The notes under the pieces: model-generated
Database searches by the model: none
Told to the model about the DNA's origin: nothing
What the model saw: only the letters and a program-made list of their open reading frames with translations
Part shown: in pieces, positions 3,471 through 49,926 of the stretch
How the letters are laid out: each line of letters begins with the position of its first letter
Numbering within the stretch: the first letter of the stretch is position 1
Translations under genes and position numbers: made by a program
From: Cryptosporidium bovis
Lineage: Eukaryota; Apicomplexa; Conoidasida; Eucoccidiorida; Cryptosporidiidae
Reading direction: 5' to 3'
Length of the DNA stretch: 64,000 nucleotides
Assembly (NCBI GenBank): GCA_009768925.2
Contig: VHIT02000027.1
Coordinates: forward strand, 372,001-436,000

Positions 3471-6400
3471 CTAATCCTCTGAAAAAATGTTCGGAGAAAT
3501 GTTTATTGGTAGTTTGTAAATATAAATATTGTCCTGATTAAGTAGGCTGTCTGTATTATTCAACAACGTATACCCACTAGGTAAATATCTGTCAAACTTA
3601 TATTTACGCGACAACTTAGACTGAATGGAAACAATTATTTGTGGTGTTTTATGTAAAAGTTTGAATAACTTTAAAAATCTGGCAAAAGTTAAAGTCTCAA
3701 GAATTTGTATGACTTTTTCTACCCAAACAAAAGGATGATTGCTTCCCTCAACAAAAGTGAAAAACAGATTGTTGAACAATTCAATATTGTTATTTAGACT
3801 TTTAAATTTATTTATGCAGTCTCTCTTTATAATATAAAAATCGTTTTTATCTATCAAATATGGATTCTTAAATACTTCATTCAAAAAACCCAGTAAAAAT
3901 TCTGTCAAATAAGTAACGTCTTTTGAATAAGAGTCTATTTGAATTATAATAAATATTAATGAGGAATAATATGCTGGGGAAAACGATCTAGCTGTCTCGT
4001 TTTCAATGGACAGTTTTTTTAAAAACATCGTCATCAAATCGGATAAGAATATATTAGATAGTGTTGCCAAAGCAATTGTAAATGGTGTTTTAGTTCCAAC
4101 ACCCAATAATAAAGAAACAACAGATTTATCATTGTCATTATTCGAGTATTCAAATTTGTAACTCCTCCATAATTTGTCCGGTAAAGATGTTATATCAAGT
4201 ATTTCATAGCTATTAAAGTAAATTTTGTCTGACTTTGATATTGGAGTCAGCATATTTTGAACGGTGTAAGACTTGCTTTTTAACTTTAACCTTTTCATAA
4301 CACCGGCCTTGTTTTCTATTGAAACCTTTTGATTTTCTGATACATGCAATCTAATCATATTATTTTTCTCTCTTCCCAACAAGGATATAAATTCATTCAA
4401 TATATCACCTGCAAATATTGGATCTATATTATTCATAAATATTCCCTCTAACTGTCCGTGTTTTGCCAAAAACTTGCTCAAGTCCATGATGTCTGCATAA
4501 CCTACGTTTTCAATTTCCCTGAATCTCTCAGTTGGTGATAGTGGTTGGTTTTCTGTTATAGTTCTTATTATCTCCAATGATTTCATGAGCGAAGAGGAGT
4601 GAAATACAGCTTTATAAAGCAATTTATGTACATTTCCGTACCCTCTTTTGAAGTCAGAGTAGGTAATTCGTTCATTTGGATTCCTCAAATAATCAGCAAA
4701 TACTCTTAAAAAAGTTGGAATTACATCCCGATAGCCGCTTAATATCACAGTAAACCCATTTGGGAGGCTGTTGTAAAAGTAGCTATTGTAAGTAAGTATT
4801 TTAAATTCGTTTCTAGTAAGTCTGAAACCGTGTATTTCATCCTCCAATGCAACGAGTAATGTTGAACAAAGTATTTCAATTGAAACTATTAGTCTTGGAA
4901 CTATTTTAAGTACTCTAGGAACTATTTTACTTAATTCTGAAGTAATAACTGGAGTTTGAATTCTAATTGACAAGGATGCCTCGGGTATCGATGGTATTTC
5001 GCTGTTTTTATAGTAGAAATTAAATATTTCTGGATAATAGGTATATTCGTTCATGTATTTACTGTCTTTAAATAAAGATTTTTTTATGTATCTTTTAATC
5101 GAAAACAATAAAGGCTGGGGTATTATTTTGGTTCTCTCATCTATTTCCAGAACACTCAAATCCAACGGAATGTATTTGTTTGGAGTGTCTATGTCCAAGA
5201 AATAAACCTCCTTTATGTCATTGAAAGTCATGTTATGAATTTCACTCATAAACAATATGGGAATCTCGTTTACACAGTATTCTGAATTCAAATACTTTGA
5301 TCTTAAAATTGAATTGCACGCAATAAAATTGTTTGTGTAATTTATAACACCAATTTCATCCGAATATTCTGAACCTGAGTATTCCCCCTTCATCTCTCTG
5401 TCCTCCAACTTCAGTTCTTTAAATATAAAAGAATATATAAAAATTACATATTCTTTAACTGACTTATATATCTTTTGAAATAATGATATTAAATTTGAAT
5501 TGTCCTCGACCTTAAACATACTGTTTCTGAAATTAATGTATTTCTTCGTATTTAATACCTTTAAATTCTCACCAGAGTCTTTTTTCACCCTCTTTAAAAG
5601 CAATTTCGGGGTTGAGTAAAATATTACAATGCCGTTAATGTCTATCGAATTTAAAAACGACTCCGTAAACCCAACATCCAAAACTTGTATCACCTCATCG
5701 GCGAATATAACCTCCTCAGGCTTGATATTGTACTTTTGGGACTTGTAAGCTATATTATAAGCAATATCCTTGTAAAAATCTGACTCCCTGTAATTAAATA
5801 ACAAATCCGTTACATCTTTTATTTCATTCAATAGTCTCTCAGTTACAGGACTTTCCACTATAAATTTTAATGCCAGTATTATAGCTCCAATAACCTCCCA
5901 TGAACGATTTAACTCCTTATTGTAAAGATCTACTGATATATCTAAAGTGGAAAATCCATCAAAGGAAGTTGTTGAAACTTTAACTTTACTAGACACACCT
6001 ATCTTTGTAAAATATCTTCTTAATATTCCCCTATATGAGCTGTCCAATAAGTATTTTATATATAAAGCAGGTATCCTTTTCCAGTATACTACCTGAAATT
6101 CAACAGGAATTCTTATCGTGAATGTATTAATATCCTTCTTTGTAGGTCTTTTAATTGATATTATCTTTCCAGATATACTTATAAATGGATTAACTGTGAA
6201 TTTATAGCTGTCCTCCATCCTAAACAACCTCACTCCATTGTTTTTAATATTACCAAAACTTTTAATGACGTATTTCTCTAATTTCTCCAATGGTTCTCTT
6301 CCGACTACTGACAAAGTCATTATATTTGGACTGTAGTAATTGTTAAAGTAGTCAATCACTCTGTCATATAGCTCACCACTACTCAAATTTGGATTGTTTA

Positions 6401-7088
6401 AAAATATGTTCTTATTCCCCAATATATCTCTATTAAAACTTGTACTTGCCTCGCAAACCTCTCTTTCTATTGTTTTCATCGCCCACTTCTCGTTGGTTCT
6501 CATTCTTTCAATAATGTTAAATATAGTAACCAACGCCTTATTTACATTGTCTTTGCTCAATATCGGATTTATAAAGTAACTGCTAAACCTAAACAAACTC
6601 TCATTAAGATATTCTGACCCTATTGAGAACGAATATATTGTAAGCTTTGAATGTAAATCTAAGTATATCTTACCATTCAGTGTGTTTATAAAATTATTGA
6701 ATTCGTCTACATCGGGATATTGCTTAGACGCTAATAACAAAGTATGCTGAACCAAATTTGACAATCCTTGAATATCAATAGGGTCATGTAAGAACCCCAC
6801 TCCGACCGAGATTGCTACCTCTGAATTAACTATGTTCTCATTGCTTACTAGATATACCTTTAATCCATTATCCAACTTGAAGTATCTGTATTTTGCTTTG
6901 TCTATCTTAGATTTCACAAATTTTTCATCTTCAATGCACTTTCTAATCCTACGTTGATTTTCTGAGTATTCACACAAATTCAACAAAGATACTTTGTGTA
7001 TATTGTAATCTTTTTCAAATACACAACTTAATTTAATTATCAGTATCAAGCATGACAACAGTAATGTAAATGGCAATTTACACAACAT
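3471..7088 (-). CDS. Insulinase-like (M16) protein A, degenerate zinc site, secreted
   Basis: 1205 residues, ATG at 7088. A signal peptide or anchor spans residues 1-24 (LPFTLLLSCLILIIKL). The M16 N-terminal domain opens with KYRYFKLDNGLKVYLVSN (about 66-83), a hallmark of the family. The inverted zinc motif is destroyed: where active paralogs read HFLEH this has NLVQH (111-115), losing the first His and the Glu. The distal R-X6-Y substrate motif is also absent. The rest follows the four-domain insulin-degrading-enzyme plan over a normal length, and ends in the array-wide tail with PSGYTLLN and KLPINI. This is inferred to be a non-catalytic secreted paralog. It is the last gene of the tandem array in transcription order and is convergent with the ZCCHC9-like gene. 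It groups with protein B by shared blocks in domain 2. Confidence 0.88.
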   Translation of the reverse strand: MLCKLPFTLLLSCLILIIKLSCVFEKDYNIHKVSLLNLCEYSENQRRIRKCIEDEKFVKSKIDKAKYRYFKLDNGLKVYLVSNENIVNSEVAISVGVGFLHDPIDIQGLSNLVQHTLLLASKQYPDVDEFNNFINTLNGKIYLDLHSKLTIYSFSIGSEYLNESLFRFSSYFINPILSKDNVNKALVTIFNIIERMRTNEKWAMKTIEREVCEASTSFNRDILGNKNIFLNNPNLSSGELYDRVIDYFNNYYSPNIMTLSVVGREPLEKLEKYVIKSFGNIKNNGVRLFRMEDSYKFTVNPFISISGKIISIKRPTKKDINTFTIRIPVEFQVVYWKRIPALYIKYLLDSSYRGILRRYFTKIGVSSKVKVSTTSFDGFSTLDISVDLYNKELNRSWEVIGAIILALKFIVESPVTERLLNEIKDVTDLLFNYRESDFYKDIAYNIAYKSQKYNIKPEEVIFADEVIQVLDVGFTESFLNSIDINGIVIFYSTPKLLLKRVKKDSGENLKVLNTKKYINFRNSMFKVEDNSNLISLFQKIYKSVKEYVIFIYSFIFKELKLEDREMKGEYSGSEYSDEIGVINYTNNFIACNSILRSKYLNSEYCVNEIPILFMSEIHNMTFNDIKEVYFLDIDTPNKYIPLDLSVLEIDERTKIIPQPLLFSIKRYIKKSLFKDSKYMNEYTYYPEIFNFYYKNSEIPSIPEASLSIRIQTPVITSELSKIVPRVLKIVPRLIVSIEILCSTLLVALEDEIHGFRLTRNEFKILTYNSYFYNSLPNGFTVILSGYRDVIPTFLRVFADYLRNPNERITYSDFKRGYGNVHKLLYKAVFHSSSLMKSLEIIRTITENQPLSPTERFREIENVGYADIMDLSKFLAKHGQLEGIFMNNIDPIFAGDILNEFISLLGREKNNMIRLHVSENQKVSIENKAGVMKRLKLKSKSYTVQNMLTPISKSDKIYFNSYEILDITSLPDKLWRSYKFEYSNNDNDKSVVSLLLGVGTKTPFTIALATLSNIFLSDLMTMFLKKLSIENETARSFSPAYYSSLIFIIIQIDSYSKDVTYLTEFLLGFLNEVFKNPYLIDKNDFYIIKRDCINKFKSLNNNIELFNNLFFTFVEGSNHPFVWVEKVIQILETLTFARFLKLFKLLHKTPQIIVSIQSKLSRKYKFDRYLPSGYTLLNNTDSLLNQDNIYIYKLPINISPNIFSED

Positions 7089-7809: not shown

Positions 7810-10800
7810 TCAATCCGCCTTTTTTGTAGTATAGTTAATTGGTATTTTAAAAGTCTTAATACCATCTTGGTTGGTAATGTCATAAATGCTATTTAGCCTG
7901 ATGAATCCATTTGGTGTGTAATTTTCTATTTCAACGAGTTTCTCGGAATCGCCTATATGAGCTTGAGTAGAAATAAGAAACTTTGGAGCATCTAATACTT
8001 TATTACAAATATCAACAAACTTCTCATAACTAAGTTTATAATTAAGTGCTTTAATTTTGTTAAGTATATTAGATATATCTTTTCTACAAACAATACTGTG
8101 GAAAATCCTTTTCTCAACTTGTTCATGGTCAGGTTCAATTTTGATATTAATTGATCTTTTATTAGTCAAAAGGTTATTGTATTGATCCATATCAATGCTT
8201 TTTAACAAGTTAAATACTTTAAAGAACACACTTAGTAATCTTTCAGACATTTCTGGTACATTCAGTTTACCAGATGTACATGAAATGTAAAATCCAACAA
8301 AATTAAATTGATGAATATTTGGATACAAGTCAAACTCAATCCCCTCAGTTAAACCCCTTCCTTTGAGCAAGTCAATAAGCATCCCAAGTACAATTTTAAA
8401 ATATAATGAGTCTAATGAGAATGTGGAAAATGGAACATATAATAATGAATTTGAATTATTATCCTTTAAGTTGTATAATTTATTGTAATAGTAGAAACTA
8501 CTATAATAAAAATTAGTTGAAAATGGATCCAGTATTTCCCATATCTCCATAGAATTATTTAAATTGCTTTTAAAAGAGGGTTTATCTACATAATTGATAG
8601 TTCGGTCTTCATTTTTATATTCAGTAGATATTACTTTGACAAGTGAATAAGCATGTAATGGGCTTATGTTCCCTATAATAACACCTTCGTTAGTTCCGTA
8701 TTTACCTATATAACTAGAAAGTTCAAGAACCTGCTCAAATGTTATATTTGAATAGTCTACTGTTTCCAATACATACTTGGATAGTTTTTGACACTCAAAA
8801 ATGGATTTTAATATAAATTTTGAGCTCGATTTAGATCCCATTTCAATTCTCGCTTTTGACTCAGACTCAAGTCCCTTAATAATTGTGTTATATTTATTTT
8901 GAGTAATTAATTTACCTAAACTATTCATTTTTTTCTTAAATTCCTTAATAGCAATATATACCGAACCAAAATAGTCCCCTTTAACTATAATTTCAAATCC
9001 AAATGGCACTCCTGTAAACTCTGAGGCAATATTTGTTCTGATTAAAAACAAACCAGATAAGTCACTCATTTCACTTATTACTCTACTGGACACGTACTTC
9101 AAACAGTGAACGAGAACCTCCAATGTCAACACCAATTGGCTCGAATTTAAAATTGTGTTTAATATTGGAATATTCTCCGTTTTTCTTGGAATCATATATC
9201 TCAAAAATACCCTCGAAGTTTGTCTTTTAAAACTTACATTGTTTGAAAATACTATACTGCTAAATACTGGATTGTTTAATATCTCGTTCTCATCTAAATC
9301 AATATTGTTTGGTAATGTAAACATTTCACCTGAGGAGAAATCTAATAAAGCGTTTTTAAGATATATTGGCGAGTATATCCTGTAATTTGCTGTATCTTTA
9401 AAGTTGCTTAAGTAAACCTTCTTAAGCAACTTATTTGCTCTTCTCACCCTTATTCCAATATCGTTTAATTTTATTTTATCTATTCCCATTTTTATTTCTC
9501 TTATTATATCTTTTGGTATAGAATCAATATAATACTTTATTCCGTTAAATAGATTGTTTTCTATTCCATTCATGTCATCATTCGCATCTATAAATTCAAG
9601 TGAGGAAGTAGAGATCGAGGATGCCTCATAACTGCTATTGTAAATATGATCTTCCCAGTTATTTTGTCTGTTTCCTCCATCAGAATCAATACAGCTATTA
9701 TCAGTAGAAATAATATCTTCATTATCTAACAAATTACCGAGTACACCGAGATCTTTTGAATTAAATACATTTTTTATCTTATCCAAGTGCTTTAAATAAA
9801 TAATGATGTTATTCAAAGATACTTTGTTCATTAACTTTTTAATCTCTGTTAAATTGGGGTTTCTCATTAAGTTACCTGCAATAAGAACCTCTTCTGGAGA
9901 ACAGCCTCTGGTGTCAAATGAATATATAATTTGCCTATTTATATACTCAGGTGAAACCTCAAAGTAGTAATCAAATGTATTTTTCATTGATTCCTGAATT
10001 TCCACAATAATATCTTTGAATATTGGACTACTTTTAATGTGTTCTATTAAAATAAACGTAACTTGCAATATTGTTTTAATCCTATCAACACCACTTTCAG
10101 TTAGAACAAAACTAATCTCAAAGTTAGAAAAACCATAGTTGTCTGACACTACTTTTGAATTCATTGTTTTAATTAAATCTCTCGTGATTAAGTAGTTCAT
10201 TAAGCTGTATTCCGAGTTATCATTCAACAAATATTCTAAATATTTACCTGGAGACGAATCCCAAAGAACTTCTTGATACTCAACTGGAAATTCCAAAATA
10301 AGTTCATTACTAATATTTGATTGCAAACGAATGACGCTCCCTATATTGCCTATATGTGGATGGCGAACTACTTTAAATAGGTCCTGTGGCAGTATATTAC
10401 GTAATTTTAAGTCTTTAAGTGATGAAAAACCTGAAGTTACTCCTTTTGTTAGTTTTGCAATTGATTCCTTACTTGCAATTGCTATAGTCATTATATTAGA
10501 GCTGTAATTCTTTTTCTGAAACTTTTTAATTCTATCAAGCAACTTAAACCCTGAATTTACCTCCGCCTCTTTAATAGATTCGTTTGTAATTACCCTTTGT
10601 CTTTTAAAGATAGAATCATAAATGGATATATCCCTTCTTACACACTGAAAAACATACTCTTCGTCTTTTTTTAAAATGTTAAGTGACTCTATTGTTCTTT
10701 CTATCTCAGCATAAAGTAAATTTTCTGAAAATACTGGATTCTTAATTGCGTTACTAAACATATTCAATGCATTCATTATATGCACATTGTCTATTTCAAA

Positions 10801-11274
10801 TGTAAATATTGTGCTCCTGTCCAATACCTCTATATTAACTATGCCATTTACAGATTCGAAATAACCACACAATTCGGATAAATCATCTTTGTTACTCGAA
10901 ATGAAACAAGGTGTTTTCTGCACAAAATTGACAAATCCTGGTAGATCTTCCGGATCATGAACTGACCCTATTTTCATTGAAAGTGTTATCACACTTTTCG
11001 CAAATGATTTATTGGACACTAAGAAAACGTTCATCTTGTTACTAAGCCTTAGAAATTTGTATTCAGAATTATCTATTTTTGATCTTACAAATAACGAGTC
11101 ATCCACGTTATTTGTAGCTCTTCCAAGTATGTTTACTTTTGTATTCATTGTCTTGTTTTTCAAACCACTGTTTTGAATTATACTTTCAACATTGTTTATT
11201 TTAAAGTAAAAAATTAAATTTGTTGATAGTATTAAGGATATTACAAGGTTTAATCTTGCCAAAAACTTCAACAT
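7810..11274 (-). CDS. Insulinase-like (M16) protein B, degenerate zinc site, secreted
   Basis: 1154 residues using the ATG at 11274. The frame also opens upstream at a GTG (11301), but the ATG gives a clean signal peptide (residues 1-24, LNLVISLILSTNLIFYF). The M16 opening block is EYKFLRLSNKMNVFLVSN. The zinc motif is lost: NFVQK (116-120) replaces HxxEH, with none of the three key positions kept. A Ser/Asp-rich loop of about 50 residues sits in the linker between the two halves (around 528-575). The C-terminus ends with FKIPINYTTKKAD after NGFIRLNS, the shared tail motif. Domain-2 similarity (FPVEYQEVLW) pairs it with protein A (IPVEFQVVYW). Probably a secreted pseudoenzyme. Confidence 0.87.
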   Translation of the reverse strand: MLKFLARLNLVISLILSTNLIFYFKINNVESIIQNSGLKNKTMNTKVNILGRATNNVDDSLFVRSKIDNSEYKFLRLSNKMNVFLVSNKSFAKSVITLSMKIGSVHDPEDLPGFVNFVQKTPCFISSNKDDLSELCGYFESVNGIVNIEVLDRSTIFTFEIDNVHIMNALNMFSNAIKNPVFSENLLYAEIERTIESLNILKKDEEYVFQCVRRDISIYDSIFKRQRVITNESIKEAEVNSGFKLLDRIKKFQKKNYSSNIMTIAIASKESIAKLTKGVTSGFSSLKDLKLRNILPQDLFKVVRHPHIGNIGSVIRLQSNISNELILEFPVEYQEVLWDSSPGKYLEYLLNDNSEYSLMNYLITRDLIKTMNSKVVSDNYGFSNFEISFVLTESGVDRIKTILQVTFILIEHIKSSPIFKDIIVEIQESMKNTFDYYFEVSPEYINRQIIYSFDTRGCSPEEVLIAGNLMRNPNLTEIKKLMNKVSLNNIIIYLKHLDKIKNVFNSKDLGVLGNLLDNEDIISTDNSCIDSDGGNRQNNWEDHIYNSSYEASSISTSSLEFIDANDDMNGIENNLFNGIKYYIDSIPKDIIREIKMGIDKIKLNDIGIRVRRANKLLKKVYLSNFKDTANYRIYSPIYLKNALLDFSSGEMFTLPNNIDLDENEILNNPVFSSIVFSNNVSFKRQTSRVFLRYMIPRKTENIPILNTILNSSQLVLTLEVLVHCLKYVSSRVISEMSDLSGLFLIRTNIASEFTGVPFGFEIIVKGDYFGSVYIAIKEFKKKMNSLGKLITQNKYNTIIKGLESESKARIEMGSKSSSKFILKSIFECQKLSKYVLETVDYSNITFEQVLELSSYIGKYGTNEGVIIGNISPLHAYSLVKVISTEYKNEDRTINYVDKPSFKSNLNNSMEIWEILDPFSTNFYYSSFYYYNKLYNLKDNNSNSLLYVPFSTFSLDSLYFKIVLGMLIDLLKGRGLTEGIEFDLYPNIHQFNFVGFYISCTSGKLNVPEMSERLLSVFFKVFNLLKSIDMDQYNNLLTNKRSINIKIEPDHEQVEKRIFHSIVCRKDISNILNKIKALNYKLSYEKFVDICNKVLDAPKFLISTQAHIGDSEKLVEIENYTPNGFIRLNSIYDITNQDGIKTFKIPINYTTKKAD

Positions 11275-33331: not shown

Positions 33332-33766
33332 ATCTTTCCTTATTTTATTAGCTGCATGATTATTTTAATTTATATTGCCTTTGCTCATTAATATTTATTG
33401 CACACTAATATTACATCTAAACTGACCTCGTGTTTTCGTATATTATTATTTCAAAATATTTTCGGTCACACTATGTTATCTAAATATTAACAACATTTTG
33501 GATATATTTATAAAAAAAAGACAAAGCAAACACTACTTTTCTATATTTACCAGAAACACCTGTTGATTTGATCTATTTTCAACACTGATTTATATACAAA
33601 TAATAGTTAAATTTAACACAATATTCCTACTAATTCCCTTTTTAGCAAAGAAATAATTACTCCGATACTAACAACCTATACTCTTTAGTTTTAAATCGAG
33701 AAAAATGTTGACTGTATAAATCGTATTTAACAGTAAGTGGTAATTATGGTTAACAATAAGATATTG
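33332..33766. promoter_or_regulatory. Intergenic spacer, promoter of protein G
   Basis: 435 bases, the shortest spacer inside the array. It is AT-rich, with no motif or coding signal that I can support. Confidence 0.4.
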
Positions 33767-37562: not shown

Positions 37563-40500
37563 TTAAGTCAAAGGTTTTGCGCTTCCAGCTGGTTTTATAA
37601 TTTTAGCGTTGTTCAATTCGAAGAAATCGTTAGTATAGTATATAAAGGTGAAACCTTTGGGAACAGAAGGTTCAGTTTCATCTCCACCATAACTCACAGA
37701 CCTTTGAATAGTGTGCATTAATACAGGTGAGTTATCAAATGTTTTTTTAATGAAATCTATAAGTGTTCTAAATTTTAATGAAGATAGAATTAACTTTTTG
37801 CTTCTGCATCTATTGAAACTGAATCTTTTGTTAATAATTTCATCAATTAAATTATAGTATTCATAATCTTTATCAGATTCATTTTCAAACTTTGCAATAA
37901 AAGACTCTTTAAGAGAGTTAAATAATGAAAGATTCAAAATTTTAATAATACTCTCAAAAATGGAGTTAAATGTTGTTATCGTATTACTGTTAACAATATT
38001 TAAGCTCTCATTTGAAATTGCAGTTATAGAGAAAAATATATAATTTCTGTTAATCAAATTGCTTCCAAGTGAAATTTCAACAGAACCTGTGGTTTTAATG
38101 TATTTTGTGAAAACCAAATTTGCTAGTGCAAAAATAAATTCACCAAGTACTTCGTAATAAGGCTCAAATCTCCCTAGATATATTCCTAAAATTGAAAAGT
38201 TTTTCTGAATAGTTTTTGTTAGTGAAACTTGAAAGTAAAGCTTTGTTTTGGGAGGTAACGATTCCAAGTCAATAATCTGTAAATTTGAAAGTTTTTTTGA
38301 ACTCAGATTACTGTATTTTAAAGGTGACGATCCCGAACACGAGTTCTTTTTAGAATCATTCTTTATATTCAAGCCAATACCCTGATTTGCATATTCCGAC
38401 TCATTTTCTAGAACAAATCCAGTAAATTTAGCCAGTGTTCTCATTGTTCTCTTTATATTTGTAAATGTCTTAAATTTTCTAGCTGTGAGACTTCTGCTCT
38501 TGATGGTTCTAGTTAAACGAGAGAAACCGCTTGCTCTTTTCTTGTTTCGTTCCGTTGACAAGTTTGTTATTGATTTTAAAGAACCACTACCAGGATTCTC
38601 ACCTGGAAAATCTCTTTTTATTTCATAAAAAAAATTGCTGAGGCTACTTTCTGCATCTATTGGACTCAATTTACTATATATAAATCCATTAAAATTGCTG
38701 TGTAAAAATATATTTTTTACAAAATAGGAAAATAAATCAAATTTAATTGACTTTATTTCTTTATATACCTTTTCTGCATATAAATTAAAATTTGAATTTA
38801 AAACTGATAAGTAGATGAGTAAATTTTCCATTTCAAAATTATCTTTGTAATTTTTCAAATAATTTATTGAATTCCTGGCGACTAAAGCAAACATTTGGGC
38901 ATCTAGATTCAGCAAATTATTTATAAGTTCTGAAATAAGTTCCATTCTATGTCCTTTATCAAATATAAATAACAAATTAAGAGCAAATACATTGTTTATT
39001 GCAGAACTTGGTATTGATATGTTCGATTCTGCAGTGAACTTTATATTGGAATATTCATTTATAATTTTAGCTGAAAAATGCCTAACTGACTCTCTAATCA
39101 AAAATAATAAGCTGTAAACAGTAATGGAATTAAGTTCCAGTAATTTTTTAATATGATATGGAAAAGAAAAACTTAAAAACAGTGCAAGGTCGTCTTTTTG
39201 TTCTTTATGGAAAAAGTAATAGATGTGACTAAACACACTAAAGTTTTTGGTTCTTTGTACTGAATTTCCATCAAGTATTTCATTAAGTTTAATTGGTTGT
39301 TTAATATTACCTTTTAAACTATTGCCATTATTTAAATGGTTCATTTGCTCTCTAAATTCACTCTTGTTTATTACACTATCATACGTCATTTCATTGTCTA
39401 TATATGGTGGAAAAATATCCAAACTGTTTGTGAATTCAGTGGGAATACTCTCTAGATAACTCACTAAACACTCATTCATATTTCCAAATAGATAGTTAAT
39501 ACCAAAATAAACTTTATAATTTACTTCTTGTGCGTCTAAGTAACTGGTTAATTGAAATATATGGAAGGTATTTTTATTTGAAATCAAGTTTGAGTAGGAA
39601 GTACAATCTTCCTTATCCTTTATAAATTTTGGAGCTGAATTCATTTGCGAATGAAAAGTAGGCCTTGATAGCAATATCTGAATTGACATGTTTCTAGGGT
39701 TTATTTGTTTGATTATTCTGCTTTCTAGTTCGGAATCGAAGTCCGAAAATTCAAGATGTCCAAATAACAATGAACTAACGGTTCTAGTTCCAAAACTAAA
39801 TAAATTTGAAACAATTTGCTCCGTTTCCAAATATAACTCCCGGTGTTCTCTTAAGTATTTTGCATTATTCAATACAGTAGACTTAGATTTGGTATAGAAT
39901 TCCAAGTTGTGACCCATTTTTTCAACTATTTTTATTGTCGAGAAGAATGATTTGAGAATAAATGGAATCTCATTTATTCCGTCACCAATGAGATTAAAAT
40001 TAATCGACAGATTGGAGTAACCAACTAAATACTGAACCAATATGATATCTATTCTAGAAACAAGATTTTTGCTAATTAGAAGGTTAATTAGGGATTTTGA
40101 ATCGTCTCTTGAATTTATTGTTCTAGACAAGAAAAAAATAGGATCATTCTTGTAAAAGGGAAAAGTATACTCCACAAGGGGGAAAAGTAATGTAATTGAG
40201 TTCTTGTCTTTGTTGTCTGAAATGAATATGCTGTTCAATGAAAACAAATATGGATTCACAATCGCCACTCTAGTAGGCTTCATTGGAGAATATACAGAAA
40301 GATTCTTGTTCGAAATATTGCTGAAAAAATCATTCATCAATTTGCTCAGCCTTTCTAAAGAAAGATTGCTCTTTACCGAAATAATAAGCCTATTTGCACT
40401 GTAATTCTCCACAAAAAAATCCCTAAATGGAGCAGATGCCTCATCAGAATCAGAGTTTTTAATGAAATCTACTGTTTCAAGGTCGTAATAAATGTTTTTT

Positions 40501-41207
40501 GATCTCTTATCACTTGAAGAATGTGGGGATGAAGATAACAAAAGCGAATGAAATAGAATATCGTTCATCCTAATATTTTCCCCAGAAATAAGCTCAGTTT
40601 CTATGGTTTTTATTGAACCAAGAAGAGACTTTTTGGTTATTATTGGATTAGTGAACATATCACCAATTAACTCCAATGTACGTTCAAAAATAGTACATGG
40701 AACAACAAATTCGTAACTGCTATAAACTTGAAAGATATCATATTTGTAAAATCCAGAATTTTCCTTCATAAAATCTTTTAATCCGTATTCCTGTTTATAC
40801 AGGTTTGAAAGACTCATTAATGCTGTCATTAATATAAAAGCTAAACCTCTGAATTTATCAGGCTCATGCACAACTCCAACACCATTAATTATAGAAATTT
40901 CACACTTCTCAACGTTGTTCTCACTAATTAGAATTGACATTAAACCATTTTTCAATTCATATACCTTATATTCAGAGTTTAATCTTGATAAAAAGGTAAA
41001 GGTTGAAGCTGAACTCTTAAAAAAGGTGTCCGCACCTTTATTTAATAACCGGTCAGCTTTCACATTACTGACTTTCACGGTTGAATCCCCCAAACAATTA
41101 CAAAAAAGAATGACATTTTCACCTATCCCAAGCAAACCGCTACCTAATAAGTCAATTATTGCATAAAAGCACAGTATTGCAGACAGGAAAGAGTTATTTA
41201 TGCGCAT
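37563..41207 (-). CDS. Insulinase-like (M16) protein I, degenerate zinc site, secreted
   Basis: 1214 residues, ATG at 41207. A signal peptide lies at about 6-25 (SFLSAILCFYAIIDLLGSGL). The M16 block is EYKVYELKNGLMSILISEN. The zinc motif is replaced by FILMT (124-128) inside GLAFILMTALMS. A strongly basic insertion in the C-terminal half (KKRASGFSRLTRTIKSRS and onward, several Arg/Lys/Thr repeats) is unlike other members and could bind an acidic partner or be proteolytically processed. It ends PKGFTFIYYTND, the shared tail motif. Catalytically dead by inference. It lies between the two active-type genes H and J, so the active genes are not adjacent duplicates. Confidence 0.86.
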   Translation of the reverse strand: MRINNSFLSAILCFYAIIDLLGSGLLGIGENVILFCNCLGDSTVKVSNVKADRLLNKGADTFFKSSASTFTFLSRLNSEYKVYELKNGLMSILISENNVEKCEISIINGVGVVHEPDKFRGLAFILMTALMSLSNLYKQEYGLKDFMKENSGFYKYDIFQVYSSYEFVVPCTIFERTLELIGDMFTNPIITKKSLLGSIKTIETELISGENIRMNDILFHSLLLSSSPHSSSDKRSKNIYYDLETVDFIKNSDSDEASAPFRDFFVENYSANRLIISVKSNLSLERLSKLMNDFFSNISNKNLSVYSPMKPTRVAIVNPYLFSLNSIFISDNKDKNSITLLFPLVEYTFPFYKNDPIFFLSRTINSRDDSKSLINLLISKNLVSRIDIILVQYLVGYSNLSINFNLIGDGINEIPFILKSFFSTIKIVEKMGHNLEFYTKSKSTVLNNAKYLREHRELYLETEQIVSNLFSFGTRTVSSLLFGHLEFSDFDSELESRIIKQINPRNMSIQILLSRPTFHSQMNSAPKFIKDKEDCTSYSNLISNKNTFHIFQLTSYLDAQEVNYKVYFGINYLFGNMNECLVSYLESIPTEFTNSLDIFPPYIDNEMTYDSVINKSEFREQMNHLNNGNSLKGNIKQPIKLNEILDGNSVQRTKNFSVFSHIYYFFHKEQKDDLALFLSFSFPYHIKKLLELNSITVYSLLFLIRESVRHFSAKIINEYSNIKFTAESNISIPSSAINNVFALNLLFIFDKGHRMELISELINNLLNLDAQMFALVARNSINYLKNYKDNFEMENLLIYLSVLNSNFNLYAEKVYKEIKSIKFDLFSYFVKNIFLHSNFNGFIYSKLSPIDAESSLSNFFYEIKRDFPGENPGSGSLKSITNLSTERNKKRASGFSRLTRTIKSRSLTARKFKTFTNIKRTMRTLAKFTGFVLENESEYANQGIGLNIKNDSKKNSCSGSSPLKYSNLSSKKLSNLQIIDLESLPPKTKLYFQVSLTKTIQKNFSILGIYLGRFEPYYEVLGEFIFALANLVFTKYIKTTGSVEISLGSNLINRNYIFFSITAISNESLNIVNSNTITTFNSIFESIIKILNLSLFNSLKESFIAKFENESDKDYEYYNLIDEIINKRFSFNRCRSKKLILSSLKFRTLIDFIKKTFDNSPVLMHTIQRSVSYGGDETEPSVPKGFTFIYYTNDFFELNNAKIIKPAGSAKPLT

Positions 41208-41873: not shown

Positions 41874-44800
41874 TTAATCAATATTAAATATTTTGATTTG
41901 ATTAAATGCCCTAACACCTTCCATAGAAAACAGTGTTTTAGCCTCATCCAACTTGGTAAATTCATTAGGGGTAAATTCTTTAAGTCTATCTAATTCACTG
42001 CTATTGCTAATTGAGTTTGGTGATTGAATTGCGAACATTACCATATTAGAATAATCGTAAATGTTTCTGTACCAGTTAATGAAGTCTTTAAAAGAAATGT
42101 CTTTTAAAAATTGAATACTTCTTTCCCTCCACTCAAAATCGTACTCCTTTCTCTGAATAGTGTCAGAATACTCTGCATTCACGTCTGCAAAACTTGTAAG
42201 TTCGTCCTTTAAATATTCTATATAAGACAACCTTGACACATCAAACATTTCATTTGTGATTAAATTAGATGAAGTAGAAAACCATTTATCCCAGAACTCT
42301 AGCACATTTTCAGAGATAACATCGACATTATTGTTCGATGAAACAACAACAAAGGAGAATCCAGAAATATGCCCAGAAAATGTTTTATATGTGGAATAAA
42401 CAATATAACCAAGTTGTTTATCCGTCCTCAATTCAGCGAAAAATTGATCAGAAATTATTGATACCAACAAATTTGTAAGTAGGAACGACCCCAAAGATCT
42501 GTAATCAACATAAATGTTTAATATGATTGCACTGTTAATGTCAATTTTAGATTCAGATATCTTAAACAAGTAGTATTTTGATTTTCTGGGAAGTGAAACA
42601 ACATCAAGAATTTGTAAATTACCTAAACTTTCTGTAGAATTATGAATATATAAATCAGATCTCAGGTGATCTGGAATGTGTGAATATTCTCCCATTTGAG
42701 ATTCGTTACATCCAAAATAATTTTTTAAACTAGTGTATAATGATCTGAATCTATCCCATAGTGAGAAAAAGAAGTCAGATACAAACATAAAACTAAATTC
42801 ATTATTTGAAGTAATTTTTCTGTTTTCTTCGGTATAAAGAGTCGTGAAAAAGTGATCCAGTATATCAACGACAGCCTTTGGATCCATATTACCAAATACA
42901 AATCCACTCAATTTTGAGGCATTTAAAAGTAAATCAGTGAATTCAATAAATTCCTGAAAATCAAGTGACGATAGCTCTTTTAGTTTCGCCTCAGGAGATA
43001 AGTCTTGATTAAAATTAAGTTTATTTAACATCCTGGAATACTCATCGCTTATCTCCGGATTATCAAAATAGTCCATTAATTTTTTTTCTAAAAGTTGTAT
43101 TTGAATGTCAAACTCATGTTTAGTTACTTTTTTTGAGAACTCCCTAATTAATTGTGCTGATCTGTACATAACCAATGGCATTTTATCTGTAAAACCAAAT
43201 GAAACAAAAGTTGCCTGAATTGTATTCAAATAGCTTGAGGAAAATGAACTTGTACTCATAGATGCTAGATACGAAGCTAGGTCTAACTCAAACAATTCCT
43301 GTGAAAATTTTGTTGATATTAACACAGAAAATAAGTACGAATACAATTCCAATCTTAGTGAATTCGTTGTTATTGAAACAGAATTTTTTAATACTTTATC
43401 CAGTGGAAAATCAAACATAACTTTAAATGTCACTTTTGGAATATTTAATATGTGTGTTGGATAATAAAAGAAATCCTTATATAAACCAAAGTTCTCATAT
43501 TCAGAAGACAAGTCCTTATTCACATTTGATTTTCCGTATTTACTAAGAGCGTCACCCAACCTTATAGGTACATTTTCAACAGTTACTCCATTCAAATTAT
43601 TCGAGAAATCACCAGATATATATGGATTTGGTTCTGAATGTGTTATTCCGAATTTTTCTATAGCCATTTTTGGTGTTACTTGTTTTAGGTATGAAATAAA
43701 ACAAGGATTCAATTCCTTTGTCACATATTTCGCTTTTGTGTAATTTTCCTCTAATATTTCACCAATGGAAAGCTTAGAACTTAATAACAGCTCGTTATAA
43801 ACTTTATCTTCCAAATGTTCACTGCTTGGATACAAACTACAAATAATATTATCCTCCACAGAAATTGAATTATTAATAACATCCTCCAGGTTCTTGACTC
43901 TGAAGAAAACCAACATATTATCTGGATTAATTTGAGACATTATCTCTTCATGTGTTTCCATATCAAAATCTGAAATTAAATATGACTTTTTAAGTACTTC
44001 TTCTGGTTTAGACTCATAGTTGTAGTATGTCTCCAATATATTATTACTTTCATCAAACAAACTAAGTACTTTGCCATAATCGAAACTTGACAATGAAGTC
44101 ATTTTTTTTTCATTGTATAAATCAATCTTTGGTTCTGTATTCTTAATTAATTTAATTACTGAAAAGAAGGCTTCAAAAATTAAAAACAAATTCTTTTCAC
44201 CCTTTTTAGTTAATGTTACCGTTAATTCTACATAAGAAAAACCTATATTGTAATCATCTACATCCAAATCCATATCAAAAATAAGTCTTGAATTGTATAA
44301 GTATTGATACAGTCCACCTTTTCTTTTTGACGAAATGTATCTTTCAAGAAGGAAAAGTCTGTCTTGTGAAATAGTTTTCGGCATATATCTTTTCAAGGGA
44401 AATATTACCTTAATTCTCATGTCGTTTCCAAAAGAATCCAATAATACAATCTTATTGGTTAAAGATTTAAATGGGTTAACAGAATTCTTATCTATTGGCT
44501 CAGAAAATGTCTGAATTGGGAGATTCTTATTTTCAATACCTGAAAAATGCTTAATTGCCATGTTTGTTAATTCATCCAAAGATTGATTGCCTGTAAGAAC
44601 CAGTACCATTCTATTTGAACTGTATTCACTCTTAAAAAATTTAATAACCTCCTCTCTAACATCAATTCCAATAGATTCAGGTATTCTTTTCAAAGTGTCG
44701 AGATTACCGAAATCAAATCTACTAAAAAGGCTTTTTTTATCTACTAGACTCTTGAGAACGAAATATAAACGTAAATCATCGTCTGTTTTTGCGTAATTAA

Positions 44801-45398
44801 ATTCATTTTCTATTGCCATCAATTCCTTATAAGTGTAAGTATCATCAAACAAGGGTGCTTTGAAAAACTCAGAAAATCTATCCAGTGCCTCATCAAATGA
44901 TAGTGAGTCTACAGTTAATTCATATACTGTTTTGTATGAATGTGTATGAGCATTTGTGTAACCATTGTGCAAACCAATAAACTTCATAAAACCGTCCAAA
45001 TCTGGATATTTCTCGCTGTTTATAAACAATAAATGCTCCAAGTAATGAGCAAGCCCGTAAAGTATTCCTGGTTCCATTGATGAACCCACTTTAACATTCA
45101 TCAATGCCGTCGATTTCGTTGTCTTCGAATCAGACACCAAAAACACTTCCAACTCATTCAGTAGCTTTACATACCTGTAACTCCTCTCAGAAATTACCGG
45201 CTTAAGAAATTCATCATCATCTACTATACTAAGTATAGACCCTTGAAACTTGTCACCATTTAAATCAACCCTCTCTCTTAAAGATACAAGGGAAATATTG
45301 GAATTTTCAGTAGCAAGGCTACTCCTAGATATAAATGATGTACATATTATTGCAGTTAACAACAGCACAATATTATTTAACCTCAGTTTTCTACTCAT
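41874..45398 (-). CDS. Active-type secreted insulinase (M16A metallopeptidase) J
   Basis: 1174 residues from the ATG at 45398 (a GTG lies one codon upstream). Signal peptide residues 8-29 (NNIVLLLTAIICTSFISRSSLA) with a plausible Ala cleavage site. After SYRYVKLLNELEVFLVSD comes the intact zinc motif HYLEH (118-122) in GLAHYLEHLLFINSEKYPD, with third ligand Glu199 in ENEF, again 76 residues on. The distal ELRTDKQLGYIVYS carries R991 and Y998 in the same spacing as the R824/Y831 pair of human insulin-degrading enzyme, and QLGY is identical to it. This is the best IDE-like member of the array and is predicted to be a secretory-pathway zinc peptidase acting on small peptides or on parasite/host surface substrates. 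It pairs with K by shared domain-2 (ISSKRKG) and domain-3 (NVPIRL) blocks. The likely promoter has GCCGCCA 71 bases upstream. Confidence 0.93.
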   Translation of the reverse strand: MSRKLRLNNIVLLLTAIICTSFISRSSLATENSNISLVSLRERVDLNGDKFQGSILSIVDDDEFLKPVISERSYRYVKLLNELEVFLVSDSKTTKSTALMNVKVGSSMEPGILYGLAHYLEHLLFINSEKYPDLDGFMKFIGLHNGYTNAHTHSYKTVYELTVDSLSFDEALDRFSEFFKAPLFDDTYTYKELMAIENEFNYAKTDDDLRLYFVLKSLVDKKSLFSRFDFGNLDTLKRIPESIGIDVREEVIKFFKSEYSSNRMVLVLTGNQSLDELTNMAIKHFSGIENKNLPIQTFSEPIDKNSVNPFKSLTNKIVLLDSFGNDMRIKVIFPLKRYMPKTISQDRLFLLERYISSKRKGGLYQYLYNSRLIFDMDLDVDDYNIGFSYVELTVTLTKKGEKNLFLIFEAFFSVIKLIKNTEPKIDLYNEKKMTSLSSFDYGKVLSLFDESNNILETYYNYESKPEEVLKKSYLISDFDMETHEEIMSQINPDNMLVFFRVKNLEDVINNSISVEDNIICSLYPSSEHLEDKVYNELLLSSKLSIGEILEENYTKAKYVTKELNPCFISYLKQVTPKMAIEKFGITHSEPNPYISGDFSNNLNGVTVENVPIRLGDALSKYGKSNVNKDLSSEYENFGLYKDFFYYPTHILNIPKVTFKVMFDFPLDKVLKNSVSITTNSLRLELYSYLFSVLISTKFSQELFELDLASYLASMSTSSFSSSYLNTIQATFVSFGFTDKMPLVMYRSAQLIREFSKKVTKHEFDIQIQLLEKKLMDYFDNPEISDEYSRMLNKLNFNQDLSPEAKLKELSSLDFQEFIEFTDLLLNASKLSGFVFGNMDPKAVVDILDHFFTTLYTEENRKITSNNEFSFMFVSDFFFSLWDRFRSLYTSLKNYFGCNESQMGEYSHIPDHLRSDLYIHNSTESLGNLQILDVVSLPRKSKYYLFKISESKIDINSAIILNIYVDYRSLGSFLLTNLLVSIISDQFFAELRTDKQLGYIVYSTYKTFSGHISGFSFVVVSSNNNVDVISENVLEFWDKWFSTSSNLITNEMFDVSRLSYIEYLKDELTSFADVNAEYSDTIQRKEYDFEWRERSIQFLKDISFKDFINWYRNIYDYSNMVMFAIQSPNSISNSSELDRLKEFTPNEFTKLDEAKTLFSMEGVRAFNQIKIFNID

Positions 45399-46329: not shown

Positions 46330-49300
46330 TTAGTCAACATTATATGCAGTAATTGGATTAAACGATTTAATATCGTTTTGATTAAGGAAATATCCTGTTT
46401 TTACTTTAATATAGCTCTCAGGAACGTACTTTTGAAGTTCATTGTAGCCTCCCTCACTGATTTTTTGCGAATAAATACCAAACAACATTTTCTTAGAATT
46501 TGGCCACAACTTTTTGCACCATCTTCTAAAGCTCGAATAACTAACATCAGACAAAAATTCGATTTGAGTGTGCTTCTTATCAAAATCATACCTTTTGCTA
46601 TATATCTCACTTTTGAAATCTCTCAACATAATTGATATGTCCGAAATTTCTTCACTGAGGTTCTTTAGAACGACTTTCTTTGAATCTTGAAACATAAGAT
46701 CTGTAAAGCTTAAAATTTTTGAATTAAACCAAATGTTGAAAAATTCATTGGCAAAATTAACAAGAGACTGAATTTCATAATTTGGTGATTCACAGTGCAC
46801 TCTAATGGTCAGCATACGATCAAATAGTATTCTTTTTTCTATTGAAATGAAATCGTTGTAGTTGTATATTGATTTGAACTCCTCCAAGTAATACCTTGAC
46901 ATCACGAATACAAATAAATCTGCAAGAATGTCCGTCTCTTTTGTATAATAGTCAACTACGATTGATAACATAACGCTGTTATCGGCTACATTCGGATTTC
47001 TGGAAACTTCATGATAATAAAAGTTATTTTCCTCCAATGATAGTAAATCAACAACTCCGAACTCAGAAACTGAATTTGAAGTTGTTCTTTTTTGTATATT
47101 TGAACTAAGATGTGTTGGTATATTGAAATCAAAGCAAATATCACCGAATAAATTGTCAAATAAACTTTTAATTGTAGATTTAACACTTTTAATAAAATTA
47201 GACACTAAATTTACCGGTGGAAAAGTTGGACTATTTTTGTCTTTTTTCCTGTCATTTTTGACTTCATATCTTCCCAAATTTATAGCAAATATAAGTATTA
47301 ATTCCCTGGACTTAACTGGAGTTACATTTCCAAAAATCCAACCCTCCATTCTACCGTAATAAACCAAGACATTACTTACATTCACAACATCCTCCAATGT
47401 AATTTCATTCATAACCCTCATGATACTTGCATCTGAGGCATCCTGATTGAACAGAAAATTTCTTTCTATATAACTAAATTGATCTGAAAATTTATTCCTA
47501 GGGTCATTTTTTCTTTTATTGAAGTATAACCTTTTTGCTAATTTGAAGTTGGAGTTGTTTATATAATCGGTAAAATTAACTAATTTTTGTGCTATTATTG
47601 AAATGTAGCTAATTATATGATTTACATAACCACTTATTTCTATTGAAATTCCAAAAGCAGTAGATGGAGTTTCAAAAGGAGAGACCTTGTTGAAAGAAAC
47701 ATACGTCAGAGATCCCTCCAAATAGAAATTAATATCGTCCAATAATTTTGTTAGAATAAAAACTATGATAAAAAATATGATATCCAGCTTTTTTGTGTGT
47801 AGTGGAATAATTACCTTTCCAAATGCTTTTTTGAAAGGTAATTTAAGATATATCAAAACGTTTGTCCTTGGATTTGTTTGGAAGTGTGAGGGTAAGTAAA
47901 AGAATCTTTGATAATCTTTAACAATATCTTCAGACAAAAATTTGATATCCTGTTTGGAACCTGACTTCATTATTGCCTCTGAAAGTCTGATAGGTACATT
48001 TTGAGGTTCAATTTTATGTAAGGATGAGAATATCTTCAAGTTACTAAATAGTTTTAAATCCGGTTTTGAAACCTCAAAGTCGGTAAAAGCTGTTGTCGAA
48101 TTTACCATTTTTTTTAAAAAATTTATTATGCAAGGGTGTATAGTTTTTATAGCATATAAAGCACCAGTGGAGTTTGAAGATGTAAAATCCTCTTTTAACA
48201 AGCTTTGGTAAAAGAGTAGGTTATAATCGAAATTATCTAAATCGCTTAAGATGTTGTTGCATGCGACACTCTTTGTTGAATTATTCCCAGTAATTTCTGA
48301 TTCACCGCAGTCCCCGAAAACATCACTTATTGTAGGCTTGTTTATATATATATTCGGTTTTTTCTTTAAAAAAAAATAGTTATTATTCATATAACTAATA
48401 CTTCGAATGTGAAGAATAAGTAACATGTTTTCTGGAGTTAAGTCTGAAAGAATATTTTTTTGTAATTCGACGTTGAATTCACTATGTTTAAATTGTGCAG
48501 AAAGAACCTTTTCCGGAGCACATTTATAAGATTCGACCGAATTTTGGATGCTAAAACATTCATCAAACGAATAATAATCCTCTTTATATTTAAATCTATC
48601 ATAATCAAGTTTTTTGGTTAATTCAATTAATTCAAAATCAACATCGGTATTTCTCATCATCTCAAATACTGAGAAAATACCCCTTAGAACCTTCAAGACG
48701 TTTATTTTATAGTCCTTAAAAAAATCTATCTCAATATAGAGTGCCGAATACCCCCTGAGATAATTTCTAAATCCCACTTTAATGTCTGCAACAAGTTCCT
48801 TGTTAGATAAAAAGTAATAAAGACTTCCTTTCCTTTTACTAGATATAAAACTATTAAAAAACAACTCTGGGTTTGAGCTTTTGTATGGTGAAACGTATTC
48901 CCTCAATGGAAAGAGAATCTTTAATTTTGGTAATTCATCATTCGAGTAAAAAATTACATTTTTTTGTATTAAACTCAACAAAGGATTTTTGGTTGGATCA
49001 ATATGATAATGATTACTCTCTAAATGATTCTCAATCCTGCTAAACAGTTTGTCAACCATTCTAGTCTGTTCATCAAGAGAAATATTCGAAAGTAGTACAA
49101 ATGTCATATTTCTTGCATTATAATGCATTCTAAAGTATTCCAACATTTTTTCTCTTAAATTGTAACCTAAATCAGATGTTATATTCAGGTTCTTTATATT
49201 TGAGTCGGAATGATGTATGCTTTCTTTAATTGACAATTCCTTAATTACTTCAACCAGTCTAATCAAGTCAGAATTAGCTGTATCATCCATTTCGGTATTC

Positions 49301-49926
49301 AACAAACCAACCAATTCGTCATCTATTTCATTAACAATATTAGGATTGACAAAAATTCCAGAGAATAGCCTCAGTGTCTCCTCTGTTTTCTCTGAACTAA
49401 CTAAAAAGTTATATCTAACCTTTTCTCTCTCTGTTTTCGTACTTATATTAACAGTATTGTTAATTATAGCATCTTCCTTTGAATAACCCTTAAAGGAGTT
49501 GAGTATAATCGAATATTGAAGAAACCTGGATAAACCTGGGAGATTATGTGGTTCAAATTCAATTCCAGCCCTTACAATTAATGACCCAAAAGATAAAGTC
49601 GTATCTTTATCTTGCACCATAAACACCTTCAAATCATTATTTAATTTTACAAATCTATACTTTCTTTTAGTAGTAATTGGTTTTTCAAACAGTTCATCAT
49701 CAATAATTTCCATTACATTCTCAAATTCACTATAAGAGCTTTCATTATTTACCTTTTTATACAAATATGATGTTTCATTTGTATAATTCAAATTATTTCT
49801 TAATTTGATGTAGCTGTTTTCATATAATAACAGTCCACTGGAGTAAACCGAGTATTTGTAGCTATACAACAATTCAAACAGCAACAAAAGGCATATGTAC
49901 ACAACTTTAAGTACAGATAAAAACAT
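46330..49926 (-). CDS. Insulinase-like (M16) protein K, degenerate zinc site, secreted
   Basis: 1198 residues, ATG at 49926. A signal peptide covers residues 4-21 (VLKVVYICLLLLFELLYS). The M16 block is KYRFVKLNNDLKVFMVQD. The zinc motif reads RFLQY (134-138): His to Arg, Glu to Gln and His to Tyr, so all three are lost while the flanking GLS.FL frame is kept. The R-X6-Y motif is also absent. It is the closest paralog of active protein J: SSKRKGSLYYFLSNKEL against SSKRKGGLYQYLYN, and NVPIRLSEAI against NVPIRLGDAL. This pair shows one duplicate keeping and the other losing catalysis. It is the first gene of the array, divergent from Pol alpha, with an E2F-type TTGGCGGGA only 31 bases before its ATG. 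Confidence 0.87.
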   Translation of the reverse strand: MFLSVLKVVYICLLLLFELLYSYKYSVYSSGLLLYENSYIKLRNNLNYTNETSYLYKKVNNESSYSEFENVMEIIDDELFEKPITTKRKYRFVKLNNDLKVFMVQDKDTTLSFGSLIVRAGIEFEPHNLPGLSRFLQYSIILNSFKGYSKEDAIINNTVNISTKTEREKVRYNFLVSSEKTEETLRLFSGIFVNPNIVNEIDDELVGLLNTEMDDTANSDLIRLVEVIKELSIKESIHHSDSNIKNLNITSDLGYNLREKMLEYFRMHYNARNMTFVLLSNISLDEQTRMVDKLFSRIENHLESNHYHIDPTKNPLLSLIQKNVIFYSNDELPKLKILFPLREYVSPYKSSNPELFFNSFISSKRKGSLYYFLSNKELVADIKVGFRNYLRGYSALYIEIDFFKDYKINVLKVLRGIFSVFEMMRNTDVDFELIELTKKLDYDRFKYKEDYYSFDECFSIQNSVESYKCAPEKVLSAQFKHSEFNVELQKNILSDLTPENMLLILHIRSISYMNNNYFFLKKKPNIYINKPTISDVFGDCGESEITGNNSTKSVACNNILSDLDNFDYNLLFYQSLLKEDFTSSNSTGALYAIKTIHPCIINFLKKMVNSTTAFTDFEVSKPDLKLFSNLKIFSSLHKIEPQNVPIRLSEAIMKSGSKQDIKFLSEDIVKDYQRFFYLPSHFQTNPRTNVLIYLKLPFKKAFGKVIIPLHTKKLDIIFFIIVFILTKLLDDINFYLEGSLTYVSFNKVSPFETPSTAFGISIEISGYVNHIISYISIIAQKLVNFTDYINNSNFKLAKRLYFNKRKNDPRNKFSDQFSYIERNFLFNQDASDASIMRVMNEITLEDVVNVSNVLVYYGRMEGWIFGNVTPVKSRELILIFAINLGRYEVKNDRKKDKNSPTFPPVNLVSNFIKSVKSTIKSLFDNLFGDICFDFNIPTHLSSNIQKRTTSNSVSEFGVVDLLSLEENNFYYHEVSRNPNVADNSVMLSIVVDYYTKETDILADLFVFVMSRYYLEEFKSIYNYNDFISIEKRILFDRMLTIRVHCESPNYEIQSLVNFANEFFNIWFNSKILSFTDLMFQDSKKVVLKNLSEEISDISIMLRDFKSEIYSKRYDFDKKHTQIEFLSDVSYSSFRRWCKKLWPNSKKMLFGIYSQKISEGGYNELQKYVPESYIKVKTGYFLNQNDIKSFNPITAYNVD

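What the first reader, a model, noticed from the sequence alone, without database searches (positions are those of the whole stretch)
3471..49926. Eleven-gene tandem array of insulinase-family proteins in which only two keep a zinc site
The zinc motif HxxEH can be aligned in ten of the eleven proteins. It reads HFLEH in H and HYLEH in J, but NLVQH (A), NFVQK (B), RFLAL (C), FLITE (D), SLLSE (E), HLLKN (F), FILMT (I) and RFLQY (K) elsewhere; G has none. The flanking fold blocks (YK.L.NGL.VFLVSN, FPIP.Q, GNxTPxQ, PxGYTxL) are still conserved over 1100-1300 residues without any stop. Independent loss of the ligands with retention of full length suggests selection for a non-catalytic role: binding chambers for peptides, inhibitors or partners of the active enzymes, or adhesive/decoy secreted proteins. 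This is the strongest candidate for an undescribed system here.
Basis: partly seen in the sequence, partly recalled or inferred. Interest (0 to 1): 0.9.

Follow-up and report, generated by a model that had tools for sequence, protein, structure and literature searches.

The report
Mostly dead insulinase-like gene array
A gut parasite of the genus Cryptosporidium carries eleven side-by-side genes for insulinase-like proteins, most of which have lost the enzyme's cutting site yet stay intact, so they probably bind rather than cut; this gene cluster is already known from related parasites.

Summary
Eleven uninterrupted ORFs on the minus strand (3471-49926) form one tandem M16 (insulinase) array in a Cryptosporidium close to C. 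ryanae. Only H and J keep HxxEH. They also keep the distal zinc Glu and the C-terminal Arg/Tyr pair; the eight degenerate members that could be aligned keep at most two of seven catalytic residues each. C and G are M16 relatives by profile comparison only; G is just the N-terminal half.

At least two degenerate genes are maintained. A has seven full-length relatives, changes at a pace similar to active J, and its former zinc helix is among its most conserved parts. Neutral decay to the observed divergence would leave about 20 stop codons in A and 13 in G. The tree supports two or three losses of catalysis, in blocks that follow gene order.

It is not an undescribed system: the C. parvum chromosome 3 cluster, its degenerate motifs and its expression were published in 2012 (PMC3305300), and a protein-interaction role for inactive members was proposed (PMC7225287). 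Binding by catalytically dead clamshells is the best reading, but is untested. Structure prediction did not finish.

The parts
3471..7088 (-). A: M16A pseudoprotease, 1205 aa, NLVQH at the zinc motif (6744-6758)
   Evidence: Pfam M16 and M16_C; seven full-length relatives plus one partial; motif
7810..11274 (-). B: M16A pseudoprotease, 1154 aa, NFVQK
   Evidence: Pfam; alignment
13269..16532 (-). C: very divergent M16A relative, 1087 aa, motif RFLAL or AYVQG depending on alignment
   Evidence: no Pfam match; hhalign E 9.7e-19 with shuffled controls
17633..21631 (-). D: M16A pseudoprotease, 1332 aa, FLITE; basic amphipathic stretch in hinge insertion at 19625-19678
   Evidence: Pfam; stretch as strong in 2 of 300 shuffles
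22655..26650 (-). E: M16A pseudoprotease, 1331 aa, SLLSE
   Evidence: Pfam; alignment
27452..31015 (-). F: M16A pseudoprotease, 1187 aa, HLLKN; keeps one motif His and the distal Glu, the nearest to a residual metal site
   Evidence: Pfam; alignment
31529..33331 (-). G: N-terminal-half-only M16 relative, 600 aa; basic amphipathic stretch at 31667-31720
   Evidence: no Pfam M16 match; hhalign E 8.4e-10 to profile 69-575, hmmsearch negative; C. ryanae relative 597 aa, 70% identity; stretch as strong in 1 of 300 shuffles
33767..37099 (-). H: predicted active M16A protease, 1110 aa, HFLEH at 36881-36895; no clear signal peptide
   Evidence: full catalytic set; Pfam; N-terminus
37563..41207 (-). 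I: divergent M16A pseudoprotease, 1214 aa, FILMT
   Evidence: Pfam just over cut-off; alignment
41874..45398 (-). J: predicted active M16A protease, 1174 aa, HYLEH at 45033-45047; same group as C. parvum INS-16
   Evidence: IDE match E 5e-64; full catalytic set; relatives
46330..49926 (-). K: M16A pseudoprotease, 1198 aa, RFLQY, on the J side of the tree
   Evidence: Pfam; trees

Best explanation
This is the insulinase-like (INS) array of Cryptosporidium near a chromosome end, corresponding to the C. parvum chromosome 3 cluster. One ancestral active M16A gene duplicated in tandem (supported by the tree). Catalysis was then lost at least twice: once in the ancestor of the A-F block, and once or twice in I and K beside active J (supported; C and I are placed less surely, and the direction is read from the active outgroups). 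The losses removed the zinc motif and the Arg/Tyr pair of the opposite half, while fold-defining residues largely stayed and all frames are open (shown). The degenerate proteins are therefore selected, secreted pseudoproteases (maintenance shown for A and G, inferred for the rest; secretion inferred from N-termini). The most likely mechanism, inferred, is that the two-half M16 clamshell still closes around, or presents a surface to, a peptide or protein partner without cutting it, with each paralog used at its own life stage.
For: Array (G left out) is one clade, 100/99 and, without C and I, 100/100. Degenerate rows as one clade rejected, p-AU 0.0019 and 0.0037; A, B, D, E, F together 97/95 and K with J 100/99. 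H and J keep the equivalents of H108/E111/H112, E182, E189, R824, Y831 (roles of the motif, E189 and the Arg/Tyr pair from PMC12731061 sections 3.1-3.2; E182 and the numbers 824/831 recalled). A is 78% identical to its C. ryanae relative and 52% to that of C. felis, against 81% and 42% for J. NLVQ in 9 of 9 A rows; the zinc-helix window is in the top 2.4% most invariant. 0 of 200 neutral simulations kept A or G open. All C. parvum cluster genes expressed, in five patterns (PMC3305300 passages).
Against: No binding partner, substrate or structure was found. Cross-species comparison was possible for A, J and G only. Absence of activity rests on missing residues; F keeps two of three zinc ligands. 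Conservation of A's helix may be structural. The A-F clade has lower support (83/91) when C and I are included. A is slightly less identical to C. ryanae than J is.
Confidence: 0.6

Rival explanations
1. Degenerate members pair with the secreted active member J (or other active INS proteins) as regulatory or substrate-binding partners, as the inactive alpha subunit of mitochondrial processing peptidase does with beta.
For: MPP-alpha precedent (PMC11266112 passages); IDE-type enzymes are said to act as homodimers (PMC8074150 passages); J and nine degenerate members have hydrophobic N-termini.
Against: M16A proteins already carry their second half in the same chain; C. parvum cluster genes fall into five expression patterns; C. 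parvum INS15 and INS16 were each dispensable for survival (PMC11478815 passages).
Confidence: 0.2
2. Secreted decoy, adhesin or antigenically variable surface proteins, with the M16 fold only a scaffold.
For: The window ends 8.4 kb from the contig end; strong divergence between paralogs, 15-25% identity to J; INS proteins are discussed as invasion and host-range factors (passages).
Against: The former active-site helix, which lines the chamber in relatives (recalled), is among the most conserved parts of A; A changes at a pace similar to J.
Confidence: 0.2
3. Slowly decaying pseudogenes or genes under relaxed selection.
For: C and I are on very long branches; G is half length.
Against: All eleven frames open; 0 of 200 neutral simulations stay open for A or G at the observed divergence; no M16 remnant below E 0.33 in ten intergenic stretches and the left flank.
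Confidence: 0.04
4. Cryptic metalloenzymes with zinc ligands supplied from elsewhere.
For: F, I and K keep the distal Glu, and F also one motif His.
Against: The general base Glu and the Arg of the Arg/Tyr pair are each kept in 0 of 8. No structure model was obtained to look for other ligands.
Confidence: 0.05

Closest known systems
Cryptosporidium parvum chromosome 3 INS cluster (cgd3_4170-cgd3_4280)
   Same: Tandem M16 genes near a chromosome end, many with degenerate motifs, all expressed (PMC3305300 passages; 11 in tandem in PMC4407392 passages)
   Different: C. parvum has two J-like neighbours (INS-15, INS-16) and 12 consecutive genes over 57 kb; here one J-like gene and 11 ORFs over 46.5 kb
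Insulin-degrading enzyme (M16A)
   Same: Family of the long members; J matches IDE at E 5e-64
   Different: Nine of eleven lack HxxEH; inter-domain insertions absent from frog IDE
Mitochondrial processing peptidase alpha subunit
   Same: Inactive M16 member with a retained function (PMC11266112 passages)
   Different: A ~500-residue partner of a separate beta subunit; here mostly full-length two-half proteins; G alone resembles a single half
Plasmodium SERA proteins, e.g. SERA5
   Same: Apicomplexan pseudoprotease with a non-enzymatic role (PMC4671257, title and start of abstract seen in a search listing only); tandem arrangement is recalled
   Different: Papain-like fold, different protease class

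Membership tests
M16A peptidase (insulinase) fold family | M16 N-terminal domain followed by M16 inactive domains | tested here: met
   Pfam over cut-off in 9 of 11; C and G by hhalign only; G has the N-terminal half only and is missed by hmmsearch
Active M16A peptidase | HxxEH plus distal zinc Glu | tested here: not met
   Met in H and J, not met in the other nine
Active M16A peptidase | C-terminal Arg/Tyr pair | tested here: not met
   Met in H and J; Arg kept in 0 of 8 aligned degenerate members; G lacks this half
Active M16A peptidase | Peptide hydrolysis | not testable with these tools
   needs purified protein
Cryptosporidium chromosome 3 INS cluster | Tandem INS genes near a contig or chromosome end | tested here: met
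   one clade 100/99, G left out; contig end 8.4 kb beyond the window
Cryptosporidium chromosome 3 INS cluster | Contains the INS-15/INS-16 orthologue | tested here: met
   J groups with P0009, which is INS-16 by its length of 1176 and the INS-16 peptide at residue 38
Cryptosporidium chromosome 3 INS cluster | Gene-by-gene orthology and same flanking genes | not tested
   DNA of other Cryptosporidium species was not available; only relatives of A, J and G were retrieved
Pseudoenzyme | Catalytic residues lost while the protein is retained by selection | tested here: met
   A and G only; dN/dS not testable here
Pseudoenzyme | No catalytic activity | not testable with these tools
   inferred from residues only

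The most novel reading that the evidence does not exclude
The array makes a set of secreted, non-catalytic M16 clamshells whose former active-site helix has been re-fixed for binding (NLVQ in A, 9 of 9 rows) and which have gained basic amphipathic helices in block-specific inter-domain insertions (hinge in D, E, F, G; between domains 3 and 4 in I, J, K) that tether them to membranes such as the parasitophorous vacuole, each trapping a different peptide at a different stage.
Probability: 0.15. Interest if true: 0.65.

Novelty: already known. Interest (0 to 1): 0.35.

Why it matters
INS proteins are one of the few expanded families in a reduced parasite genome, and the functional papers seen here mostly treat members with a zinc motif (INS-5 is an exception). 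Showing that at least two degenerate members are maintained, that both halves of the active site were dismantled, and that this happened in two or three steps makes non-catalytic function a testable question. It also warns that HxxEH alone does not mean active: C. parvum INS-16 keeps it but lacks the Arg of the Arg/Tyr pair.

Tried and rejected
Searching public proteins with the alignments A1 and A2 to reach every paralog: the Cryptosporidium hits listed were mostly relatives of the first row (J, then A), with a few dispersed INS proteins and general M16 proteins; one search listed 120 of 523 hits. Relatives of B-F, H, I and K in other species were therefore not obtained; the third and last search went to G. 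Gene-by-gene loss was rejected by the trees. Decayed copies between the genes: none found. Basic amphipathic helices: the strongest window of the protein exceeds most shuffles in D (2 of 300), G (1 of 300) and less so I (18 of 300), but not in A, B, C, E, F, H, J or K (48 to 184 of 300), and an active dispersed protein, INS4-like, scored 20 of 300, so membrane tethering stays speculative. dN/dS across species was not possible: only proteins of other species were returned. Rows left out: G from both trees; C, I and INS6-like from the second; partial rows P0129 and P0010 from the conservation figures. The PHROGs scan of G gave nothing.

Full report
WHAT IS THERE. The stretch 3471-49926 holds eleven ORFs of at least 200 aa, all on the minus strand, each from ATG to stop without interruption: A 1205, B 1154, C 1087, D 1332, E 1331, F 1187, G 600, H 1110, I 1214, J 1174 and K 1198 aa. 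HxxEH is found in 2 of 11, H and J. Pfam M16 and M16_C are over the curated cut-off in 9 of 11; C and G have neither. Profile comparison places C (E 9.7e-19 over residues 67-1081) and G (E 8.4e-10, to family positions 69-575 only) in the family; in the same set-up thirteen shuffled and two reversed controls gave probabilities of at most 4.2%. A plain hmmsearch did not find G (full E 21), so its membership rests on the profile comparison. Neighbours are ordinary: a CCHC zinc-knuckle ORF at 2082-2912 and DNA polymerase alpha at 50399-54877.

WHOSE GENOME. The genome has 9.06 Mb in 43 contigs. The closest named relatives are from Cryptosporidium ryanae: 81% for J, 79% for A and 70% for G. The species itself was not named by the tools. 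The contig is 444,382 bases and the window lies at 372001-436000, so it ends 8.4 kb from the contig end. Besides the array, searches with two Pfam families pointed to eight dispersed M16 genes; six of the eight keep HxxEH, against 2 of 11 in the array. These counts are lower bounds.

THE WHOLE ACTIVE SITE IS GONE, NOT ONLY THE MOTIF. In M16 enzymes the motif histidines and a distal Glu hold zinc, and an Arg/Tyr pair in domain 4 completes the site (PMC12731061, sections 3.1 and 3.2 read). Against frog IDE, H and J keep the motif and the E182, E189, R824 and Y831 equivalents, as do the four dispersed M16A proteins put in the alignment (E182's role and the numbers 824 and 831 are recalled). In the eight alignable degenerate members the general base is kept in 0 of 8, the first His in 1 (F), the second His in 1 (A), E182 in 1 (B), E189 in 3 (F, I, K), Arg in 0 and Tyr in 1 (C, doubtful). 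In sum 7 of 56 catalytic cells are kept against 94 of 160 at the other columns invariant in 13 active rows, Fisher p 9e-10; with columns invariant in at least 12 of 13 rows, 7 of 56 against 173 of 328, p 6e-9. Rows are related and gaps count as lost, so these p-values are only indicative.

HOW OFTEN WAS CATALYSIS LOST. With the catalytic columns removed and G left out, the array proteins form one clade (100/99), so the array arose by local duplication. The degenerate rows are not one clade (p-AU 0.0019; 0.0037 after dropping the long rows C, I and INS6-like). A, B, D, E and F group together (97/95) and K goes with J (100/99). The fewest changes are three in the first tree and two in the second; the counts do not give direction, which is read from the active outgroups. 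With C and I included, the A-F group has 83/91 and I and K fall with J (97/97). The blocks follow the physical order: A-F on one side, I-J-K on the other, H between.

AT LEAST TWO DEGENERATE GENES ARE MAINTAINED. A has seven full-length relatives (1207-1290 aa; six from named Cryptosporidium, one from an unnamed source) and one partial C. canis protein. All nine rows, A included, read NLVQ at the old motif; the last position is His in eight and Tyr in C. meleagridis, so it is not held as a ligand. A is 78% identical to its C. ryanae relative and 52% to that of C. felis, against 81% and 42% for active J: a similar pace. The 20-residue window around the former zinc motif is in the top 2.4% of invariant windows of A, as it is in J (2.9%), while the third-ligand and Arg/Tyr regions are less invariant in A (0.30 and 0.25) than in J (0.45 and 0.40). 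Mutating the A, J and G coding sequences neutrally down to the observed identity with C. ryanae leaves on average 20.6, 17.6 and 13.5 stops, and 0 of 200 runs stay open in each case. This tests purging of stop codons, not dN/dS, which could not be run. No such comparison was possible for B-F, H, I and K, whose relatives in other species were not retrieved.

HOW IT MAY WORK. By a crude hydropathy measure ten of eleven have a hydrophobic N-terminus; H does not, though a missed first exon is possible. Nine degenerate proteins and one predicted enzyme, J, are thus expected in the secretory route. The simplest mechanism is a clamshell that binds without cutting. A partner role for J is possible, but C. 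parvum cluster genes fall into five expression patterns (PMC3305300 passages), which does not favour one fixed complex. Insertions between domains, absent from frog IDE, carry basic amphipathic stretches in D, E, F, G (IDE position about 490-492) and I, J, K (about 752); only D and G clearly exceed shuffles. Membrane tethering is speculation.

WHAT IS KNOWN. Mauzy et al. [quoted passage not shown] PMC4407392 (passages) gives eleven in tandem in C. parvum and C. hominis. PMC8092296 (outline and passages) counts ten of 22 INS with HXXEH. PMC7225287 (passages) states that over half lack the motif and may act in protein-protein interactions. The general idea is therefore in print. I did not find, in the ten literature searches made and the passages read, the joint loss of the Arg/Tyr pair, the count of losses, or the conserved pseudo-site; most subscription papers are not held, and main texts were read as passages only apart from two short sections.

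A SIDE RESULT. P0009 is C. parvum INS-16: it has 1176 residues and the published INS-16 peptide at residue 38. It and the C. hominis protein P0008 keep HYLEH but have Gln in place of the Arg of the Arg/Tyr pair, and ET in place of the NA of the strand after the motif. Of ten J-group rows, seven keep the Arg, these two do not, and one does not cover it. P0006, a J-group protein named from Cryptosporidium sp. 43IA8, is 96% identical to P0009 over residues 255-940 but 76% over 34-254 and 61% over 941-1154, and keeps all these residues; this is how INS15 and INS16 are said to differ, at 101-761 and 2821-3461 bp (PMC11478815 passages), and the two changes lie near bp 436 and 2977 of P0009. Removal of INS15, but not INS16, lowered parasite burden in mice. 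This suggests, without showing it, that INS-16 is itself partly degenerate. A caution: the two papers disagree on which of the pair has four domains (PMC9315855; PMC11478815), and the second gives INS15's motif as HLIEH, not HYLEH.

Noticed in passing
P0009 and P0008 (relatives of J): C. parvum INS-16 and its C. hominis counterpart keep HYLEH but lack the Arg of the M16 Arg/Tyr pair and the NA of the following strand; they may be partly or wholly inactive.
   Followed up: partly
31529-33331: G is an N-terminal-half-only M16 relative without a Pfam M16 match, conserved at 597 aa and 70% identity in C. ryanae and named hypothetical protein there; no other relative was returned.
   Followed up: partly
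L004, 1956-3098 (G000:C1:454455-455597): An ORF of 376 aa with HFLEH, resembling mitochondrial processing peptidase beta (resemblance recalled); its M16_C match covers 139 of 181 positions and runs onto a TAG. Intron or truncation not resolved.
   Followed up: no
19625-19678 and 31667-31720: Strongly basic amphipathic stretches in the D and G insertions, as strong in only 2 and 1 of 300 shuffles.
   Followed up: partly
33767-37099: H, a predicted active member, has no clear signal peptide; a spliced first exon could not be excluded.
   Followed up: partly
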